From NCBI GenBank assembly GCA_029263125.1, contig JAJCYD010000019.1, forward strand, positions 1-35,340: a stretch of 35,340 nucleotides of DNA, read 5' to 3'. Position numbers and translations under genes: made by a program. The notes below the pieces were generated by a model that was not told where the DNA came from, did not search any database, and saw only the letters and a program-made list of their open reading frames with translations. Position 1 is the stretch's first letter. Every line of letters starts with the position of its first letter. The DNA is from Solirubrobacteraceae bacterium. Its GTDB lineage: Bacteria > Actinomycetota > Thermoleophilia > Solirubrobacterales > Solirubrobacteraceae. This document shows, piece by piece, positions 2,831 to 14,226 of the stretch.

Positions 2831-3499
2831 GTGCGCTTCGGAGTCATCCGCTTTCCGGGCTCGTGCGACGAGACCGACGCCGTGCTGGCCTGTGAGCGCG
2901 TGCCGGGCTGTAGCGCCACGCTGCTATGGCACGGCGACGCCGACCTGCACGGCGTCGATGCGGTCGTCGTGCCGGGCGGCTTCTCCTACGGCGACTACCT
3001 GCGCGTCGGCGCGATCGCGCGCTTCTCGCCGGTCATGGAGTCGGTGATCGCCTTCTCAGAAGAGGGCGGGCTCGTGCTCGGGATCTGCAACGGCTTTCAG
3101 GTGCTCTGCGAGGCGGGCCTGCTGCCGGGAGCGCTGCTGCCCAACGAGGGCCTGCGCTTCCTCTGCCGCCAGGTCGACGTCGAGGTCGTGCGCTCGAGCA
3201 TGCCGTTCACCGCCGACTGCTTCCCGGGCGAACGCCTGTCGATCCCTGTGAAGCACACGACCGGCCGCTACTACGCGCCACCAGCCGAGCTTGAGTCCTT
3301 GCACGCACATGGACAGATCGTCCTGAAGTACGCCGCCGGGCACAACCCCAACGGGTCGCTGGACGACGTCGCGGGCGTGACCAACCAGGCCGGCAACGTG
3401 CTCGGGCTGATGCCCCACCCCGAGCACGCCGTCGATCCGCTGACCGGGTCGCGCGACGGCCTGAAGCTCTTCCTCTCGATGGCCCATGCGCACGGTTGA
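2831..3499 (+). CDS. purQ: FGAM synthase glutaminase subunit PurQ
   Basis: PurQ is a class I glutamine amidotransferase that releases ammonia from glutamine and channels it to PurL. The nucleophile Cys86 lies in 'VLGICNGFQVL'. The His and Glu of the triad are in 'MPHPEHAVDP' (His196, Glu198). 'VVVPGGFSYGDYLRVGA' is the expected oxyanion-side motif. The protein is 222 residues, standard for stand-alone PurQ, and starts at a GTG one base after the purS stop. Its last 14 bases overlap the start of purL. Confidence 0.96.
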   Translation: MRFGVIRFPGSCDETDAVLACERVPGCSATLLWHGDADLHGVDAVVVPGGFSYGDYLRVGAIARFSPVMESVIAFSEEGGLVLGICNGFQVLCEAGLLPGALLPNEGLRFLCRQVDVEVVRSSMPFTADCFPGERLSIPVKHTTGRYYAPPAELESLHAHGQIVLKYAAGHNPNGSLDDVAGVTNQAGNVLGLMPHPEHAVDPLTGSRDGLKLFLSMAHAHG

Positions 3500-5669
3500 C
3501 CGCGCGCTCGCGCTCGGGCTCACCGAGGCCGAGTTCGCCCTCGTCTGCGCGAAGCTCGATCGCGAGCCCAACGAGGTCGAGCTCGCGGTCTTCTCGCTGA
3601 TGTGGAGCGAGCACTGCGCGTACAAGCACTCCAAGAAGCTCCTGCGCCAGCTGCCCAGCGAGGGGCCGCGACTGGCCATGGGGCCGGGCGAGAACGCGGG
3701 CGCGGTGACCGTCGGCGACGGCTACGTGCTCGCCTTCAAGGTCGAGTCACACAACCATCCCTCCGCGGTCGAGCCCTTCCAGGGCGCCGCGACCGGCGTC
3801 GGCGGCATCCTGCGAGACATCTTCGCGATCGGCGCTCGGCCGATCGCGATCCTGGACTCGCTGCGCTTCGGGGACCCCGAGTCGGTGCGCACGCGCTACC
3901 TGCTCGACCACGCCGTCGGCGGCATCGGCCACTACGGCAACTCGATCGGCGTGCCGACCATCGGCGGCGAGGTCTACTTCGAGGGACCCTACGAGCAGAA
4001 CTGCCTCGTCAACGCGATGGCGCTGGGCCTCGCTCGTGCCGACGGCCTGATCCGCAGCGCGGCCTCCGGGGTCGGCAACGCGCTGATCCTGTTCGGCGCC
4101 GCAACCGGCCGCGACGGGATCGGCGGCGCGTCGGTGCTCGCCTCAGCCGAGCTCGGCGAGGAGGATGCGGCCAAGCGCCCGACCGTGCAGGTCGGCGATC
4201 CGTTCGCCGAGAAGAAGCTGCTCGAGTGCTCGCTGGAGCTGCTGGATCGCGGCCTGCTCGTCGCGCTGCAGGATCTCGGCGCGGCCGGACTATCGTCGTC
4301 GTCGGCGGAGATGGCCTCCAAGGGCGAGGTCGGTCTGGACATCGACGTGTCGCGCGTGCCCCTGCGCGAGGCGGGCATGGAGCCGTGGGAGATCATGGTC
4401 TCCGAGTCCCAGGAGCGGATGCTGTGCGTCACCGACCCCGAGACCGTCGCCGCCGTGCTCGCGGTCTGCGAAAAGTGGGAGGTGCACGGCACGGTCATCG
4501 GCTCGGTGACCGAGGAGCGGGTGCTGCGCGTGCTCGACGGCGATGCGATGGTCGGGGAGATGCCCGTCGAGGCGCTCGTCGACGACTGCCCGTTGTATGA
4601 CCTGACGCCGTCGCCGCCGACATCGGCCCTGTATCCGGCGCCGCCGTGCGTGCTGGGCGCGGACGTCACCGACCCGCGGGAGATCCTGCTGGCGCTGCTG
4701 GCCTCGCCGAACATCGCTTCGCGGCGCCCGCTGTTTGAGCAGTACGACTGCATCGTGCAGTCACGAACGGTGCGCCGGCCCGAACAGGCCGACGCGGCCG
4801 TGCTCGCGATGCCGGGCGGCGGCGCGATCGCCGTCTCGATCGACGGCTCGGGCCGCCGCGTGGCCTGCGACCCCTACACCGGCACGGTCGAAGCGGTCCT
4901 GGAGTGCACCGCGAACCTCGCCTGCTGTGGCGCTGAGCCGCTGGGCCTGACCAACTGCCTGAACTTCGGCAATCCCGAGAAGCCGCACATCGCCTGGCAG
5001 CTGACGGAGTCCATCCGCGGCCTGGCCGACGCGTGCCGTGCGCTGGAGGTGCCCGTGGTTGGCGGGAACGTCTCGCTCTACAACGAGAGCGGCGGCGGCC
5101 CGATCTACCCGACGCCGGTCGTCGGCATGGTCGGCGAGCTGCCGGACGCGGCGCGTGCCGGCCGGTCGGGCTTCGCCGTCGCAGGCGACCTCGTCGGCTT
5201 CGCCGGGCCATTTCGACCGTCGCTGCCGGGCTCGGAGCTGGCGAAGCTGCGCGGCGAGGAGCTGCCGTCCTCGCTGCCGCCACTGGACATCGCGGCGCTG
5301 CGAGCGGCGCAGCGCGCGATCTTCGAAGCCGTGCGCGCGGGAGCGCTTGCTAGCGCCCACGATGTCGCCGAGGGTGGCTTCCTCGTGGCGCTGGCGGAGT
5401 GTTGCCTTGCCGGCGGCGTCGGCGCCGTGCTCGACCTGGGCGCGACCGATGACCTGGAGCGGACGCTGTTCGGCGAATCACCCGGCTCGGGCTTCGTCGT
5501 CTCCGGGTCCCCGGACGCGCTCGCCGCGGTCGGCGAGCTCGTCGATCTGGATGTCTTCGGCACGATCGGCGGGGACGTGCTTGACGTCACGAGCGGCAGG
5601 GCCCGGGTGGTCGTCTCGCTAGACGACCTGCGTGGGGCACACAGCGCGCTCGCCCCGCTGTTTCCCTAA
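3486..5669 (+). CDS. purL: FGAM synthase catalytic subunit PurL (small type)
   Basis: PurL converts FGAR, ATP and PurQ-derived ammonia to FGAM. The 727-residue length marks the small PurL type that needs PurS and PurQ, both encoded just upstream. Signatures seen are 'LMWSEHCAYKHSKKLL' near residue 45 (active-site His), 'FKVESHNHPSAVEPFQGAAT', 'GGILRDIFAIGARPIA' and 'DLGAAGLSSSSAEMASKG'. In the second AIRS-like half they are 'TNCLNFGNPEKP' and 'VVGGNVSLYNE'. The start ATG lies inside purQ (14-bp overlap). The gene closes the purC-S-Q-L operon; a 170-bp gap with a large palindrome separates it from the next gene. Confidence 0.96.
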   Translation: MRTVDRALALGLTEAEFALVCAKLDREPNEVELAVFSLMWSEHCAYKHSKKLLRQLPSEGPRLAMGPGENAGAVTVGDGYVLAFKVESHNHPSAVEPFQGAATGVGGILRDIFAIGARPIAILDSLRFGDPESVRTRYLLDHAVGGIGHYGNSIGVPTIGGEVYFEGPYEQNCLVNAMALGLARADGLIRSAASGVGNALILFGAATGRDGIGGASVLASAELGEEDAAKRPTVQVGDPFAEKKLLECSLELLDRGLLVALQDLGAAGLSSSSAEMASKGEVGLDIDVSRVPLREAGMEPWEIMVSESQERMLCVTDPETVAAVLAVCEKWEVHGTVIGSVTEERVLRVLDGDAMVGEMPVEALVDDCPLYDLTPSPPTSALYPAPPCVLGADVTDPREILLALLASPNIASRRPLFEQYDCIVQSRTVRRPEQADAAVLAMPGGGAIAVSIDGSGRRVACDPYTGTVEAVLECTANLACCGAEPLGLTNCLNFGNPEKPHIAWQLTESIRGLADACRALEVPVVGGNVSLYNESGGGPIYPTPVVGMVGELPDAARAGRSGFAVAGDLVGFAGPFRPSLPGSELAKLRGEELPSSLPPLDIAALRAAQRAIFEAVRAGALASAHDVAEGGFLVALAECCLAGGVGAVLDLGATDDLERTLFGESPGSGFVVSGSPDALAAVGELVDLDVFGTIGGDVLDVTSGRARVVVSLDDLRGAHSALAPLFP

Positions 5670-5797: not shown

Positions 5798-5841
5798 ATG
5801 AGTAGCACCGGATAGCACGCGTGCTATCACCGGCTACTCAT
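5798..5841 (+). promoter_or_regulatory. 44-bp nested palindrome with four 10-bp-phased half-sites (probable RHH operator)
   Basis: The core GATAGCACGCGTGCTATC (5811-5828) is a perfect 18-bp palindrome. On both sides comes the same ACCG tetramer, then the outer arms ATGAGTAGC (5798-5806) and GCTACTCAT (5833-5841), which are perfect inverted repeats. The four TAGC/GCTA cores begin at 5803, 5813, 5823 and 5833, exactly one DNA turn apart. The outer right arm includes the first two bases of the start codon of the RHH gene (ATG 5840-5842). Ribbon-helix-helix proteins bind arrays of such half-sites cooperatively. The position predicts autorepression of the RHH-purF-GNAT operon. Confidence 0.85.
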
Positions 5842-6358
5842 GCCAGAAGAGCAACCCCTCAACTTCCTCGCGGCAGACGACGATGACGGCGACATCATCG
5901 CGTCGAGGATCGAGCTCGAGAAGATCCCGCGCCGGCTGTGGGAGCAGACGCTGGCGCCGCTGCACTACCAGGAGCGCTACGAGGTCGCCCGGAGGATCTC
6001 CGACGAGGAGCTTCGAGGCGCAGGGCTCGAGCTCGCCTACGAGATGGACTCAGCGGATGTCGCTCGGCGGCGCGAGCGCCTGGAGGCGCAGGGTCAAGCG
6101 CGGCGCGCCGGTGCTCCGCTGCCCACGCCGGACGCCGACCACGCAACCGCCCGGTCGTCGCCGCAGCTCAACTTCCGCCTGCGCCACGACGATCACGCGC
6201 GGCTGAAGGAGGCCGCTGCCGCCGCCGGCATGAGGCCGACGACGCTGGCCCGGGCGCTGGTGCTCAACGGCGTCGCGATGATCTTGCGCGAGCGCGACGC
6301 CGGCCGCGACCCATCCCGCGGTTCGCCGCCGAACCGCGGGCTATCCTTTCGGGAGTGA
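5840..6358 (+). CDS. Ribbon-helix-helix transcriptional regulator lying between purL and purF
   Basis: This 172-residue protein has an acidic, charged N-terminal region (about 1-105). Its C-terminal segment, near 110-155, fits a ribbon-helix-helix DNA-binding domain. The β-strand is 'SPQLNFRLRHDDHARLKEA', helix A runs through 'KEAAAAAG', the turn is 'MRPTT' and helix B is 'LARALVLNGVAMIL'. RHH proteins are dimeric repressors. The start codon sits on the edge of a 44-bp palindrome with four phased half-sites, as expected for autoregulation. The stop overlaps the purF GTG (GTGA), placing the regulator in one operon with purF and the GNAT gene. I infer a role in purine gene control. A decayed mobile-element regulator (MobC-like RHH) is an alternative. 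The long N-terminal part is not recognised and could sense a ligand. Confidence 0.7.
   Translation: MPEEQPLNFLAADDDDGDIIASRIELEKIPRRLWEQTLAPLHYQERYEVARRISDEELRGAGLELAYEMDSADVARRRERLEAQGQARRAGAPLPTPDADHATARSSPQLNFRLRHDDHARLKEAAAAAGMRPTTLARALVLNGVAMILRERDAGRDPSRGSPPNRGLSFRE
6315..6340 (+). promoter_or_regulatory. Perfect 11-bp inverted repeat just upstream of the purF -10
   Basis: CCCGCGGTTCG (6315-6325) and CGAACCGCGGG (6330-6340) are perfect complements separated by 4 nt. The repeat lies inside the last codons of the RHH gene and occupies the -35 region of the TATCCT hexamer at 6342. It could be an operator for purF or an RNA hairpin. There is no T-run, so a classical terminator is unlikely. 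Confidence 0.6.
6342..6347 (+). promoter_or_regulatory. -10 hexamer TATCCT, internal leaderless purF promoter
   Basis: TATCCT is followed by 7 nt and the GTG start of purF at 6355. It would let purF be transcribed apart from the upstream regulator gene. Confidence 0.55.
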
Positions 6359-7797
6359 CCACGCTCGAAGGTCGCGATGGGCCGCGCGACGAGTGCGGCG
6401 TGTTCGGAATCTACGCCCCCGGACACGACGTCTCGCGACTGGCCTACTTCGCGCTGTACGCCCTACAGCACCGCGGACAGGAGTCCGCCGGGATCGCCGC
6501 CGCAGACGTCGGCGGGCACATCATGACCCTGCGCGAGCTGGGGCTCGTCAACCAGGTCTTCGACGAGCAGAAGCTGCGGGCCCTGGGCGGCGAGCTCGTG
6601 GTCGGACATGTGCGCTACTCGACGACCGGGTCAAACGGCTGGGACAACGCGCAGCCGATCCATCGCTCCGACCGCCGCGAGCTCGCGCTGGGCCACAACG
6701 GCAACCTCATCAACGCCGTCGAGCTGCACACCGAGCTGCGCGAGCGCGGCGTGAGCTTCCGCTCGACATCGGACTCGGAGATCATCGCGGCGCTGCTGGC
6801 CTCCCATGAGGCCGAGCGCATCGAGGACGCCGTCGCCGCGGTCATGCCGCGACTGCAGGGCGCCTTCTCGACGGTCCTGATGACCAAGGACACGCTCGTC
6901 GCCTTCCGCGACCCAGCCGGGCTGCGCCCCCTGGTGCTCGGCAGGATCGGCGAGCGCTATTGCGTGGCCAGCGAGTCGTGCGCACTGGACATCATCGGCG
7001 CGACCCGGGTGCGCGACGTGACGCCCGGCGAGATGGTGTGGATGAACGCCGACGGTCTGCACACCCGCCAGATCGTCACCGGCGCCCGCGAGGCCTTCTG
7101 CGTCTTCGAGTACATCTACTTCGCCCGGCCGGACTCGCGCATGGGTGGCGACGTCCTGCAGGCGATGCGCGGGCGGATGGGCGAGATCCTTGCGCGCGAG
7201 TCGCCGGCGCCCGGCGCTGATCTCGTGATCCCGGTGCCCGACTCCGGCGCGCCCGCCGCGCGTGGCTTCGCTCGCGCGAGCGGCCTGCCCCAGGACGACG
7301 GGCTGATCAAGAATCGCTACGTCGGCCGCACGTTCATCGAGCCGGGTCAGGAGCTGCGCAAGCACGGCCTGCGATTGAAGTTCAACCCGTTGCCGGAGAT
7401 CGTCGGTGGCAAGTCGATCGTCGTCGTCGATGACTCGATCGTGCGCGGCAACACGACCCGCCAGATCGTGCAGATGTTGCGCGACGCGGGCGCTCGCGAG
7501 GTCCACCTGCGCATTTCCGCGCCGCCGATCAAGCATCCGTGCCACTACGGGATCGACATGTCCACGCGCGAGGAGATGATCGCCCACGGCCGCACCGTGC
7601 AGGAGATCGCAGCCGAGCTGCATTGCGATTCGCTGGCCTACCTCTCCCTCGGCGGCGTGTACGAAGCGGTGCGCGGCTCGTCCGAACGCCACTGCGACGC
7701 GTGCTTCAGCGGCCGCTATCCGCTGGAGGGCACCGACGAAGCCAACGGCAAGTTCGCGCTCGAGCTGCCGCTGGTCGGCGGCGCCGCCATTCGGTGA
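6355..7797 (+). CDS. purF: Amidophosphoribosyltransferase
   Basis: PurF makes 5-phosphoribosylamine from PRPP and glutamine, the committed step of purine synthesis. With the GTG at 6355 the product has 480 residues. The N-terminal nucleophile is then Cys14 in 'PRDECGVFGIYAP', after a short propeptide that is cut off in this subclass. The glutaminase part shows 'LQHRGQESAGIA' and 'GHVRYSTTGSNGWDNAQPI'. The PRPP motif is 'SIVVVDDSIVRGNTTRQIV'. The C-terminal 'HCDACFSGRYPLE' resembles the Bacillus-type [4Fe-4S] enzymes. The frame is open further upstream but that part has no homology. The start overlaps the RHH stop and the TGA overlaps the GNAT GTG, so it is the middle gene of a three-gene operon with its own TATCCT hexamer. 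Confidence 0.96.
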   Translation: MTTLEGRDGPRDECGVFGIYAPGHDVSRLAYFALYALQHRGQESAGIAAADVGGHIMTLRELGLVNQVFDEQKLRALGGELVVGHVRYSTTGSNGWDNAQPIHRSDRRELALGHNGNLINAVELHTELRERGVSFRSTSDSEIIAALLASHEAERIEDAVAAVMPRLQGAFSTVLMTKDTLVAFRDPAGLRPLVLGRIGERYCVASESCALDIIGATRVRDVTPGEMVWMNADGLHTRQIVTGAREAFCVFEYIYFARPDSRMGGDVLQAMRGRMGEILARESPAPGADLVIPVPDSGAPAARGFARASGLPQDDGLIKNRYVGRTFIEPGQELRKHGLRLKFNPLPEIVGGKSIVVVDDSIVRGNTTRQIVQMLRDAGAREVHLRISAPPIKHPCHYGIDMSTREEMIAHGRTVQEIAAELHCDSLAYLSLGGVYEAVRGSSERHCDACFSGRYPLEGTDEANGKFALELPLVGGAAIR

Positions 7798-11988: not shown

Positions 11989-12673
11989 CCGGCTTGGCCG
12001 CCCGGCGACGACGAGGCGGCGCGGGCAGCGTCGAGGAGGGGCAGAAGTCCGCCAGCACGCACGCCTCACAGCGCGGCTTGCGCGCCGCGCAGACCCGCCG
12101 GCCGTGCAGGATCAGCCGGCTGGAGAACAGGCCGCGCTCGGCCGCCGGCAGCATCGGGCTGAGCTCGAGCTCGACCTTCACCGGGTCCTCCTCGCCGGTC
12201 AGCGCGAGGCGCCGCGACAGGCGCAGCACATGCGTGTCGACCGGCAGTCCCGGCTTGCCGAACGCCACGCTGAGCACGACGTTCGCGGTCTTGCGTCCCA
12301 CGCCCGGCAGGCTCACGAGATCGGCCATGCGAGCGGGGATCTCGCCGTCGAAGCGCTCGACGACGGTCCGCGCCATCCCCAGCAGGCTGCGCGACTTGGC
12401 GTTGAAGAAGCCCGTCGAGCGGATCATCTCGCCGAGCTGCGCCTCGTCGGCCCCCGCGAGCGACTCGGCGTCCGGATAGCGTGCGAAGAGCTTCGGCGTG
12501 ACGGCGTTGATCATCTTGTCGGTGCTCTGCGCGGACAAGATCGTCGCGACCAGCAGCTCGTAGGGGTCGCGATGATGCAGCTCGCACAGCTCCGCGGCGC
12601 TGCCGGGATACTCGCCGGCCAGCCGTGCATGCGTCTCGCGTGCCCTGCCGGCGGCTGTCCGGGGTCTGGCCAT
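11978..12673 (-). CDS. nth: Endonuclease III (DNA glycosylase/AP lyase)
   Basis: The enzyme removes oxidised pyrimidines and cleaves AP sites in base excision repair. The 231-residue protein has the helix-hairpin-helix 'LPGVGRKTANVVLSVAFG' with the catalytic Lys in VGRKTA. It has the catalytic Asp in 'PVDTHVLRLSRRL' and a C-terminal [4Fe-4S] site of spacing C-x6-C-x2-C-x5-C ('CAARKPRCEACVLADFC'). The N-terminal 'LLVATILSAQSTDKMINAVT' is typical. TAGGAT lies 9 nt before the ATG. The gene converges with purN, overlapping by 11 bp, and is divergent from the RTX protein gene. Confidence 0.95.
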   Translation of the reverse strand: MARPRTAAGRARETHARLAGEYPGSAAELCELHHRDPYELLVATILSAQSTDKMINAVTPKLFARYPDAESLAGADEAQLGEMIRSTGFFNAKSRSLLGMARTVVERFDGEIPARMADLVSLPGVGRKTANVVLSVAFGKPGLPVDTHVLRLSRRLALTGEEDPVKVELELSPMLPAAERGLFSSRLILHGRRVCAARKPRCEACVLADFCPSSTLPAPPRRRRAAKPARS

Positions 12674-12747
12674 CGAGACGAGATCCTACGGTCGGCGCGC
12701 ATCGGACATTCGTCCAGTCCAACTTGAGCGCGGAGCGCCGAGACGCC

Positions 12748-14226
12748 ATGATGGCCCACTTGGACCGGGGGTGGGCCAACCGAACGCTGCTGCGCGCGCT
12801 GCTGTGCGGCGTGCTGAGCACCGCGCTGGCCGCAGTGCCCGTCGCCCACGCACTCGTCAGCGACGGCAGCGGCCGCAGCGACCGCATCACCGGCTCCAAC
12901 AAGCGCGACCTGCTCAGCGGCGGCCACGGCTCCGACACGCTGCGCGGCCGCCGCGGCAACGACGTGCTGCTCGGCGGCTTTGGCAACGACAAGCTCTACG
13001 GGCACGCGGGCAACGACCGCCTGCAAGGCGACTCCGGCAACGACCGGCTCGTCGGAGGCGGCGGCGTCGACCAGCTCGACGGCGGCACCGGCAACGACAA
13101 GATTCTCGGAGGGGCCGACCACGATCGCATCGATGGCGGCGACGGTGACGACACGCTGCTCGGCGGCGACGGCGACGACTTCATCCTCGAGAAGGGCTTT
13201 GGCAACGAGAAGCGCGTCGACGGCGGGCCCGGCGACGACTACATCAACACCAACCGCGGCAGCGACCGCGCGGTCTACGGGCGCGACGGCGACGACATCC
13301 TCATCGGCGGCAACGGCGCCGACGGTCTCAACGGCGGCGCGGGCGCCGACGTGCTGGAGGGCGGATCGGGCAACGACGTCCTCGAGGGCGAGGGTGAGGA
13401 CGACACGATCATCGGCGGCGAGGGAGCGGACGTCATCCGCGGCGGTGGCGGCAACGACACGATCTGGACGGGCTTCGTCAACCCCGTCGACATCGACTGC
13501 GGCTCGGGCATCGACACCGTCTACGTCGGCTACCTGACGCTCGCGCTGCTGGAGCGCGGAACGCCCGATCAGGTGCAGGACCGCAGCGTGCGCGAGCCGT
13601 GGAGCTTTTCCAACTGCGAGGTGCTGATCCCGCTCACGGTACGCGACTTCGGCGTCGGCGAGCAACGCATCAACCCGCAGTTCCGCGATCCGCGCGACGA
13701 GGAGGGCAAGGCCTCAAACGCCGGCCTGGAGCGGGCCGGGGCCCCCGGCGCCGAGGCGATCGCGCTCGTCAACTATGCCAACGCCAATCAGCCGTCGCCG
13801 AAGTTCGGCCTGGCGACCTCCGGCAACGACTCGCTCAGCGTTCGCAAGCGCAAGTCGCTGGCCGCCGACGGCGGGCTCTATGGCCTTGCGGGCAACGATC
13901 GCCTCGAGGGCGCCAACAGCTCCGACGTGTTGCACGGCGGCTCGGGCAACGACGGGCTCTACGGGCGCGGCGGCTCCGACGTGCTCTACGGAGGCCCGGG
14001 CAAGGACCGCCTGGAAGGCGGGCGCGGCGAGGACCTCATCTACGGCGGCCCCGGCAAGGACCGCATCAACGGCGGCTTCGACAACGACCTCATCGACGGC
14101 GGCAGCGGCAACGACGTCATCACGTCGGTCGGCGGCGGTCGCGACAGGATCGACTGCGGACCGGGCAACGATCGCGTGATCAAGGACAAGCGCGACGTCG
14201 CGCGCAACTGCGAGCGCTTCGGCTGA
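12748..14226 (+). CDS. Secreted RTX-type calcium-binding repeat protein
   Basis: The 492-residue exoprotein has a signal peptide ('LLRALLCGVLSTALAAVPV', then AHA). Two blocks of RTX nonapeptides (GGxGxDxLx; for example 'LLGGFGNDKLYGHAGNDRLQ') run roughly from residue 45 to 225 and from 375 to 480. Such repeats form calcium-loaded parallel β-rolls that fold after export. An intervening non-repeat segment contains 'FSNCEVLIPLTVRDFGVGE'. The C-terminus 'DRIDCGPGNDRVIKDKRDV' followed by 'ARNCERFG' has a Cys pair common in actinobacterial members. Two adjacent ATGs (12748, 12751) are possible starts. No lipase, protease or toxin domain is present, so an adhesive or structural surface role is an inference. 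Repeats dominate the base composition. Confidence 0.85.
   Translation: MMAHLDRGWANRTLLRALLCGVLSTALAAVPVAHALVSDGSGRSDRITGSNKRDLLSGGHGSDTLRGRRGNDVLLGGFGNDKLYGHAGNDRLQGDSGNDRLVGGGGVDQLDGGTGNDKILGGADHDRIDGGDGDDTLLGGDGDDFILEKGFGNEKRVDGGPGDDYINTNRGSDRAVYGRDGDDILIGGNGADGLNGGAGADVLEGGSGNDVLEGEGEDDTIIGGEGADVIRGGGGNDTIWTGFVNPVDIDCGSGIDTVYVGYLTLALLERGTPDQVQDRSVREPWSFSNCEVLIPLTVRDFGVGEQRINPQFRDPRDEEGKASNAGLERAGAPGAEAIALVNYANANQPSPKFGLATSGNDSLSVRKRKSLAADGGLYGLAGNDRLEGANSSDVLHGGSGNDGLYGRGGSDVLYGGPGKDRLEGGRGEDLIYGGPGKDRINGGFDNDLIDGGSGNDVITSVGGGRDRIDCGPGNDRVIKDKRDVARNCERFG

What the first reader, a model, noticed from the sequence alone, without database searches (positions are those of the whole stretch)
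5798..5841. Four half-sites at exact 10-bp phasing form an operator for an RHH regulator inserted between purL and purF
The TAGC/GCTA cores begin at 5803, 5813, 5823 and 5833, the inner 18 bp are a perfect palindrome and the outer arms are perfect too. The array overlaps the start codon of the RHH gene, whose stop overlaps purF. An RHH regulator coupled to the committed enzyme of purine synthesis would be a control device different from PurR (LacI or B. subtilis type). The acidic 105-residue N-terminal part could be a sensor.
Basis: partly seen in the sequence, partly recalled or inferred. Interest (0 to 1): 0.85.

Follow-up and report, generated by a model that had tools for sequence, protein, structure and literature searches.

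The report
Protein with scattered genome-wide docking sites
The four-part DNA site next to two purine genes is one of about eleven closely similar sites scattered over this soil bacterium's chromosome, most likely docking points for the small DNA-binding protein encoded beside it; the purine neighbourhood looks incidental.

Summary
In detail: TAGC/TAGC/GCTA/GCTA lie at 5803/5813/5823/5833 in a 44-bp dyad over the start codon of a ribbon-helix-helix (RHH)-like gene between purL and purF. The purine reading does not hold. The same site occurs at about 11 dispersed places in this 3.75-Mb genome; the ten others adjoin unrelated genes, and 4 of the 11 lie between convergent genes. Four other genomes of the family carry a full-length-like homologue, and each has its own 10-bp-phased TAGC-type sites (G032 10, G002 7, G015 8, G069 2). 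In three of them one lies just upstream of the RHH gene; none of the four genes is at purL-purF. A same-genus relative keeps only an RHH relic in the purL-purF gap and shows no site. Arms are no more complementary within sites than between sites in 3 of 4 genomes, which favours a double-stranded protein site. Best reading: an autoregulated RHH-like protein with dispersed sites, working like SegB, CdbA or MatP. Binding and function are untested.

The parts
5798..5841 (.). 44-bp dyad with four TAGC/GCTA half-sites at 10-bp phase (5803, 5813, 5823, 5833); one of about 11 copies in the genome
5840..6358 (+). RHH-like DNA-binding protein gene, 172 aa (P0001); only full copy found in this genome, plus a 5' relic at C14 (L011)
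6158..6304 (+). C-terminal RHH-like region (residues 107-155): weak Pfam NikA-like match (108-144) and predicted strand-helix-helix (112-155)
5912..6019 (+). N-terminal motif shared by most homologues (residues 25-60, IPRxxWxxxLxPL...)
3486..5669 (+). purL, upstream neighbour; not part of the system
6355..7797 (+). purF, downstream neighbour, likely GTG start overlapping the RHH stop; not part of the system

Best explanation
The site is the autoregulatory copy of a small family of dispersed chromosomal binding sites for the RHH-like protein encoded beside it. Inferred mechanism: RHH dimers occupy four half-sites spaced about one helical turn apart, so all lie on one face of the DNA, and form a compact multimer. 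At the 5840 start codon this represses the protein's own gene. At the ten other places (4 convergent, 4 same-strand and 2 divergent gaps beside unrelated genes) the complex serves a chromosome-level role such as bridging or marking loci, in the manner of archaeal SegB, Myxococcus CdbA or E. coli MatP. Shown here: the dispersed family, its occurrence in genomes that carry the protein, a site at the RHH start in four of five genomes, and arm statistics that favour a double-stranded protein site. Inferred: binding, repression and the architectural role.
For: Own genome: 9 sites at up to 1 mismatch, control 0, plus two degenerate copies. Of 146 family genomes the exact N6-centre pattern is in 2, G000 and G032. 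Of 399 class genomes the exact N4-7-centre pattern is in 2, G000 and G002, both among the 4 of 399 with strong profile hits (G000, G002, G015, G069); G000 is there by construction, so the independent case in each scan is one genome. A stricter pattern over the genome-contig collection (84,980 species) hit 5 stretches, all of Solirubrobacteraceae MAG85, at the same contig positions as G032 (the own genome may be left out there). G002 and G015 have 7 and 8 dispersed variants, G069 two, control 0. A site lies over or just before the RHH start in G000, G002, G015 and G069. G001 has an RHH relic and no site by either pattern. Spacers vary while half-sites and neighbouring bases stay. Arms are not more complementary within than between sites in G000, G015 and G032. 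Of 43 classifiable places 17 are convergent and 3 divergent, against 6 and 27 of 64 other gaps in the same loci (Fisher p 2.6e-4 for convergent).
Against: No binding data. 16 of 31 TAGC sites have a gene start within 300 bp pointing away, so a mixed regulon is possible; for TAGC sites alone the convergent excess is weak (10 of 30, p 0.068) and in the own genome 4 of 11 is not significant (p 0.17). The gap baseline comes from the same small loci and a home-made gene caller. Orthologues of flanking genes spread from about 0.1 to 0.9 of the origin-terminus distance in complete relatives, so no macrodomain is seen. G032's one detected homologue has a GTAAGC pair, not a TAGC site, at its start. Not every genome was tested with every variant: the 5-bp-centre pattern with mismatches was run on 9 genomes only. 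One of 7 G002 hits has 3 mismatches, where the reversed control gave 6. The RHH assignment is below Pfam's cut-off (22.1 of 27 bits), the single-sequence model is poor (mean pLDDT 56) and the fold search gave nothing at E 0.001 or better.
Confidence: 0.5

Rival explanations
1. A dispersed repeat (REP/MITE-like) family that spreads in the genome and is bound, or was once carried, by the RHH gene: site plus gene copies move, then decay to solo sites. It works like REPIN-RAYT, but with a partner in which no catalytic family was found.
For: In G032, 19 of 22 other loci align with locus L041 at E 1e-6 or better, best alignments up to about 465-480 bp at 70-85% identity. 8 of 10 G032 TAGC loci also hold GTAAGC palindromes 33-37 bp away, and by eye some copies seem to have inverted terminal repeats. 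L011 is a site followed by a frameshifted relic of the RHH 5' end, 77.5% identical over 160 nt including the site. The RHH gene occupies at least four different chromosomal slots.
Against: In the window's genome the flanks beyond 44 bp are only slightly conserved (information 22.8; 60 null sets gave 17.0 +- 1.3, largest 20.2), while half-sites are kept and spacers vary, which looks like selection on binding. I did not search for a transposase.
Confidence: 0.27
2. A conventional RHH repressor with a small, fast-changing regulon, the sites being promoter operators.
For: One site overlaps the RHH start; 16 of 31 TAGC sites have a gene start within 300 bp; a site precedes an addB-like gene in G000 (Pfam) and in G032 (by eye).
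Against: 17 of 43 places lie between convergent genes and only 3 between divergent genes; flanking functions are unrelated; one G015 site is inside a glycosyltransferase gene. By my rough estimate (no call) one shared flanking gene is expected about 0.2 times by chance.
Confidence: 0.15
3. One reading: an RHH sensor-regulator dedicated to purF/purL control.
For: Gene and site lie in the purL-purF gap, with the RHH stop overlapping the likely purF start.
Against: Four other genomes hold the gene elsewhere; the ten other sites are not at recognised pur genes; G001 kept purL-purF but has only an RHH relic and no site.
Confidence: 0.04
4. RNA or DNA hairpin element (terminator, attenuator) rather than a protein site.
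For: Dyad symmetry; many copies at gene ends; in G002 the spacers are more complementary within sites than between (p 0.004, 7 sites).
Against: In G000, G015 and G032 within-site arm complementarity is not above random pairing of arms.
Confidence: 0.04

Closest known systems
Archaeal SegB (SegAB system)
   Same: RHH DNA-binding domain; a palindromic site just upstream of its own operon; tens of palindromic sites scattered over the chromosome; DNA looping (PMC12284271: abstract and found passages seen)
   Different: SegB works with the ParA-like SegA, and its 13-bp sites are mostly inside genes; here a 44-bp four-half-site dyad, intergenic in 35 of 36 TAGC sites as far as the gene calls go. No ParA partner was looked for genome-wide.
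CdbA of Myxococcus xanthus
   Same: RHH nucleoid protein binding many chromosomal sites with modest effect on transcription (PMC7156744: abstract and section list seen)
   Different: c-di-GMP-binding, essential, moderate sequence specificity; here about 11 highly specific sites
MatP-matS of E. coli
   Same: One protein with about two dozen dispersed specific sites that organise DNA (PMC3330122: found passages seen; that MatP has an RHH domain is recalled)
   Different: matS is 13 bp and confined to an 800-kb Ter domain; orthologues of the site-flanking genes here are spread over most of the origin-terminus axis
REPIN-RAYT
   Same: Single-copy gene with a dispersed palindromic extragenic repeat population (PMC8049555: found passages seen)
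   Different: RAYT is a transposase; P0001 matches no catalytic family in Pfam above cut-off or in NCBIfam, and arm complementarity is not selected in 3 of 4 genomes
Pfam NikA-like / CopG-type RHH proteins
   Same: Weak profile similarity of the C-terminal part, NikA-like in 3 of 5 members
   Different: Below the curated cut-off; extra N-terminal conserved part; immediate neighbours are purL and purF, not mobilisation genes

Membership tests
RHH superfamily | strand-helix-helix DNA-binding fold | tested here: inconclusive
   Pfam NikA-like E 1.7e-4 but 22.1 bits against a cut-off of 27; NikA-like weak in 3 of 5 homologues, RHH_7 in 1; single-sequence model has E112-114, H116-128, H133-155, ten-residue pLDDT means 51-78 there; no fold match at E 0.001 or better; one PDB sequence match, E 0.006, to a peptide-synthetase chain, judged chance
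Purine repressor (PurR-like function) | gene or sites linked to pur genes in relatives or across the genome | tested here: not met
   exception: RHH relic at purL-purF in G001
MatP-matS | sites confined to the terminus region | tested here: not met
   flanking-gene orthologues at about 0.1-0.9 of origin-terminus distance in four single-contig relatives; indirect, other genera, fragments for 18 of 49 loci
SegB | RHH protein with dispersed palindromic sites including one at its own promoter | tested here: met
   as sequence anatomy only, and RHH-like only:
SegB | operon with a ParA-like ATPase (SegA) | tested here: not met
   adjacent genes are purL and purF here, fmt and rsmB in G002 and G069
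REPIN-RAYT | partner is a tyrosine transposase | tested here: not met
   no such family in Pfam or NCBIfam for P0001
REPIN-RAYT | repeat forms a hairpin (arm complementarity) | tested here: not met
   G000, G015, G032; exception: G002 spacer, p 0.004
Nucleoid-associated / chromosome-organising protein | binds and bridges the sites in vivo | not testable with these tools
   no binding data

The most novel reading that the evidence does not exclude
A fast-evolving, selfish-like or architectural protein-site system in Solirubrobacteraceae. A non-catalytic RHH-like protein maintains its own lineage-specific population of phased four-half-site elements in each genome, with protein and sites changing together between genera and disappearing together. 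This would be a REPIN-like population of DNA sites kept by binding alone.
Probability: 0.2. Interest if true: 0.75.

Novelty: new variant of a known kind. Interest (0 to 1): 0.55.

Why it matters
If right, it is an apparently unnamed DNA-binding family in a poorly studied deep actinobacterial class, with a clean, short list of chromosomal sites. That offers a small natural model for how a site-specific chromosome organiser, or a repeat population, arises, changes its specificity across 7-11 sites, and is lost. It also corrects a tempting but unsupported reading (a new purine regulator).

Tried and rejected
Purine operator: rejected on neighbours and dispersal. Macrodomain-limited (matS-like) placement: not seen; this used fragments for 18 of the 49 loci prepared (G000 and G002; G015 and G032 left out), not every fragment hit in every genome, some best hits may be paralogues, and distances were worked out by hand from rounded genome sizes. 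Hairpin element: disfavoured by the arm-pairing test in 3 of 4 genomes. Extended element in this genome: flanks above all 60 null sets but only slightly (22.8; null 17.0 +- 1.3, largest 20.2), part of which comes from the two copies with RHH sequence. Arms in G002 and G015 share a pyrimidine tract and GCGAA-like bases at about -17 to -4. RHH relics beside other sites of the own genome: only L011 convinces. The G021 hit was set aside as spurious (by eye it falls inside an oxidase-like frame). Weak RHH-only hits in G011, G057, G139, G182, G262, G322 and G428 were not counted as family members; of these I printed only the G057 and G428 loci. Dropped before counts: of 36 TAGC sites, 5 lacked a flank on their contig and 1 was intragenic, leaving 30 classified; 13 further G032 loci with GTAAGC (including the RHH locus) were classified as well. 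The RHH genes of G002 and G032 were missed by my gene caller, so the next gene stands as their flank. Structure: single-sequence model poor, no significant fold match. Papers: no description of such a family appeared in the listings of searches, which are narrow and cover only an open-licence library.

Full report
Observation. The array is as described: half-sites at 5803, 5813, 5823 and 5833, inner 18-bp perfect palindrome, perfect outer arms, overlapping the ATG at 5840 of a 172-aa ORF whose TGA overlaps the likely purF GTG. It is not chance: one match in the window at up to 2 mismatches against none in 100 shuffles.

It is one of a family. In the own genome (3.75 Mb, 53 contigs) the full pattern at up to one mismatch occurs at nine places with zero for the reversed control. 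Two weaker copies (C14:213117, C35:131463) appear and align with the rest, giving about eleven. The consensus is roughly RTGAGTAGC-N6-TAGCAC-NN-GTGCTA-N6-GCTACTCAY. The shorter patterns at two mismatches are not significant by count alone (controls 638 and 595).

Neighbours. By a simple codon-usage gene caller, the eleven sites lie between same-strand genes (5), convergent genes (4) and divergent genes (2). The ten sites outside the window adjoin: an RNase R-like gene (RNB domain) and thiC (by eye); CobU-aminotransferase and CobB/CobQ-like genes; HNH and AddB-like genes; an epimerase and a DUF6572 gene; a class I tRNA synthetase (1.5 kb away) and a glycine dehydrogenase subunit (by eye); two glycosyltransferases; an enoyl-CoA hydratase and an ORF without family; DHH-CBS and DoxX genes; a protein kinase and a PASTA protein; a phage-type integrase and a protein without family. 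Sites in G002 and G015 adjoin equally mixed genes, among them ribosomal L17, histone-deacetylase-like, PrmC and RF-1, D-Ala ligase and gyrase A.

Protein. P0001 is the only full copy found in its genome. Homologues in relatives are 28-39% identical and mostly share an N-terminal IPRxxW...L.PL motif and a C-terminal RHH-like region. Pfam's NikA-like model matches below its cut-off, weakly in 3 of 5 members. A single-sequence prediction of low confidence gives strand-helix-helix at 112-155. I call it RHH-like.

Co-occurrence. Of 61 genomes (own plus 60 relatives) searched with P0001, six hit; G021 I judge spurious and G001 is a relic. Of the same 61, G000 and G032 carry the N6-centre pattern at up to one mismatch. 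A 5-bp-centre pattern, drawn from the site before the G002 RHH gene and run on 9 genomes at up to 3 mismatches, found 7 sites in G002 (6 at up to 1 mismatch, 1 at 3; control 6) and 8 nearly identical ones in G015 (all at 2; control 2). It found none in G000, G001, G004, G006, G008, G021 and G032, where the reversed control gave 4-11 hits. So of the 61, the four with a credible homologue (G000, G002, G015, G032) all have sites. In the class sample the exact N4-7-centre pattern hit 2 of 399 genomes, G000 and G002, and strong profile hits were in G000, G002, G015 and G069 (G032 was not in that sample; G015's third half-site is AGTA, so it fails the exact pattern). Leaving out G000, which is there by construction, the one other exact-pattern genome is one of three homologue carriers among 398, a chance of about 0.8%; in the family scan the one other genome with sites, G032 (of 145), also has a homologue. 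G069 has a related dyad with altered inner half-sites 12 bp before its RHH ATG and a second copy elsewhere, control 0. Not every genome was tested with every variant.

Genome slots. The gene lies between purL and purF here; between fmt and rsmB in G002 and G069; between a methyltransferase and a LOG-like gene in G032; and near a P450 gene in G015, where the site is about 62 or 77 bp before the start depending on the start codon chosen (most names by eye). In G001 the purL-purF gap keeps only the last 31 or so residues of an RHH, and G001 shows no site. L011 in the own genome is a site followed by a frameshifted RHH 5' relic.

What kind of site. Spacers vary but half-sites are mostly kept. Spacers within one site are no more alike than spacers drawn from different sites in G000 (p 0.93), G015 (1.00) and G032 (0.97); only G002's are (p 0.004, 7 sites); outer arms show no excess in any of the four. 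This points to each arm meeting a protein consensus in double-stranded DNA, not to a hairpin. Over 43 classifiable places in four genomes (30 TAGC sites, 13 further G032 loci) 17 are convergent and 3 divergent, against 6 and 27 of 64 other gaps (Fisher p 2.6e-4); for TAGC sites alone the excess is weak (10 of 30, p 0.068), and 16 of 31 have a gene start within 300 bp. One of the eight G015 sites is intragenic.

Where on the chromosome. Orthologues of flanking genes in four single-contig relatives (G014, G024, G030, G036) lie from about 0.1 (purL) to 0.9 (the L013 gene) of the origin-terminus distance, taking the DnaA hit as origin (distances by hand). There is no sign of a Ter domain, with the caveat of rearrangement between genera and of paralogous best hits.

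G032. Of 10 TAGC loci, 8 also hold GTAAGC palindromes 33-37 bp away; of 21 places with GTAAGC, 19 have a pair 22-23 bp apart and 10 have a TAGC site at up to 2 mismatches. The GTAAGC motif has 34 copies at up to 1 mismatch in G032 and none in six other genomes, control 0, and it also marks the start of G032's RHH gene. 19 of 22 other loci align with L041 at E 1e-6 or better, the best over 465 bp. This is the best evidence for a mobile or repeat-population reading. The genome is 79% complete, so a second RHH may be missing.

Judgement. I place about 0.85 on 'dispersed sites bound by this protein family', 0.5 on a chromosome-level role as the main one, 0.27 on a repeat-population reading, 0.15 on a regulon. 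Known parallels are SegB, CdbA and MatP. By the tests made it is not a member of MatP-matS or REPIN-RAYT, and it lacks SegB's ATPase neighbour; membership in the CdbA family was not tested.

Noticed in passing
G032 (L039-L048, L053-L064): Long intergenic repeats (alignments up to about 465-480 bp) with GTAAGC....GCTTAC palindromes, mostly paired, in 8 of 10 TAGC loci 33-37 bp from the TAGC site; 34 motif copies, none in six other genomes.
   Followed up: partly
L011 4054-4196 (G000 C14): Dispersed site followed by a frameshifted relic of the RHH gene 5' end, in front of an addB-like gene; G032 also has a site before an addB-like gene (by eye).
   Followed up: partly
L023 / G001 C3:546258-546395: RHH relic (3' end only) in the purL-purF gap of a same-genus genome in which no site was found.
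   Followed up: yes
L083 about 1228-1320 (G428): A distant RHH-like protein with three GATGGGTACCCG repeats at 21-bp period near its 5' end; dispersal not searched.
   Followed up: no
window 12625-14226: ORF rich in GGxGxDxLxGG-type repeats that recall calcium-binding (RTX-like) repeats; name from memory, not tested.
   Followed up: no
G015 C587, C66, C399: Further RHH-like fragments besides the C277 gene, perhaps extra or decayed paralogues.
   Followed up: no
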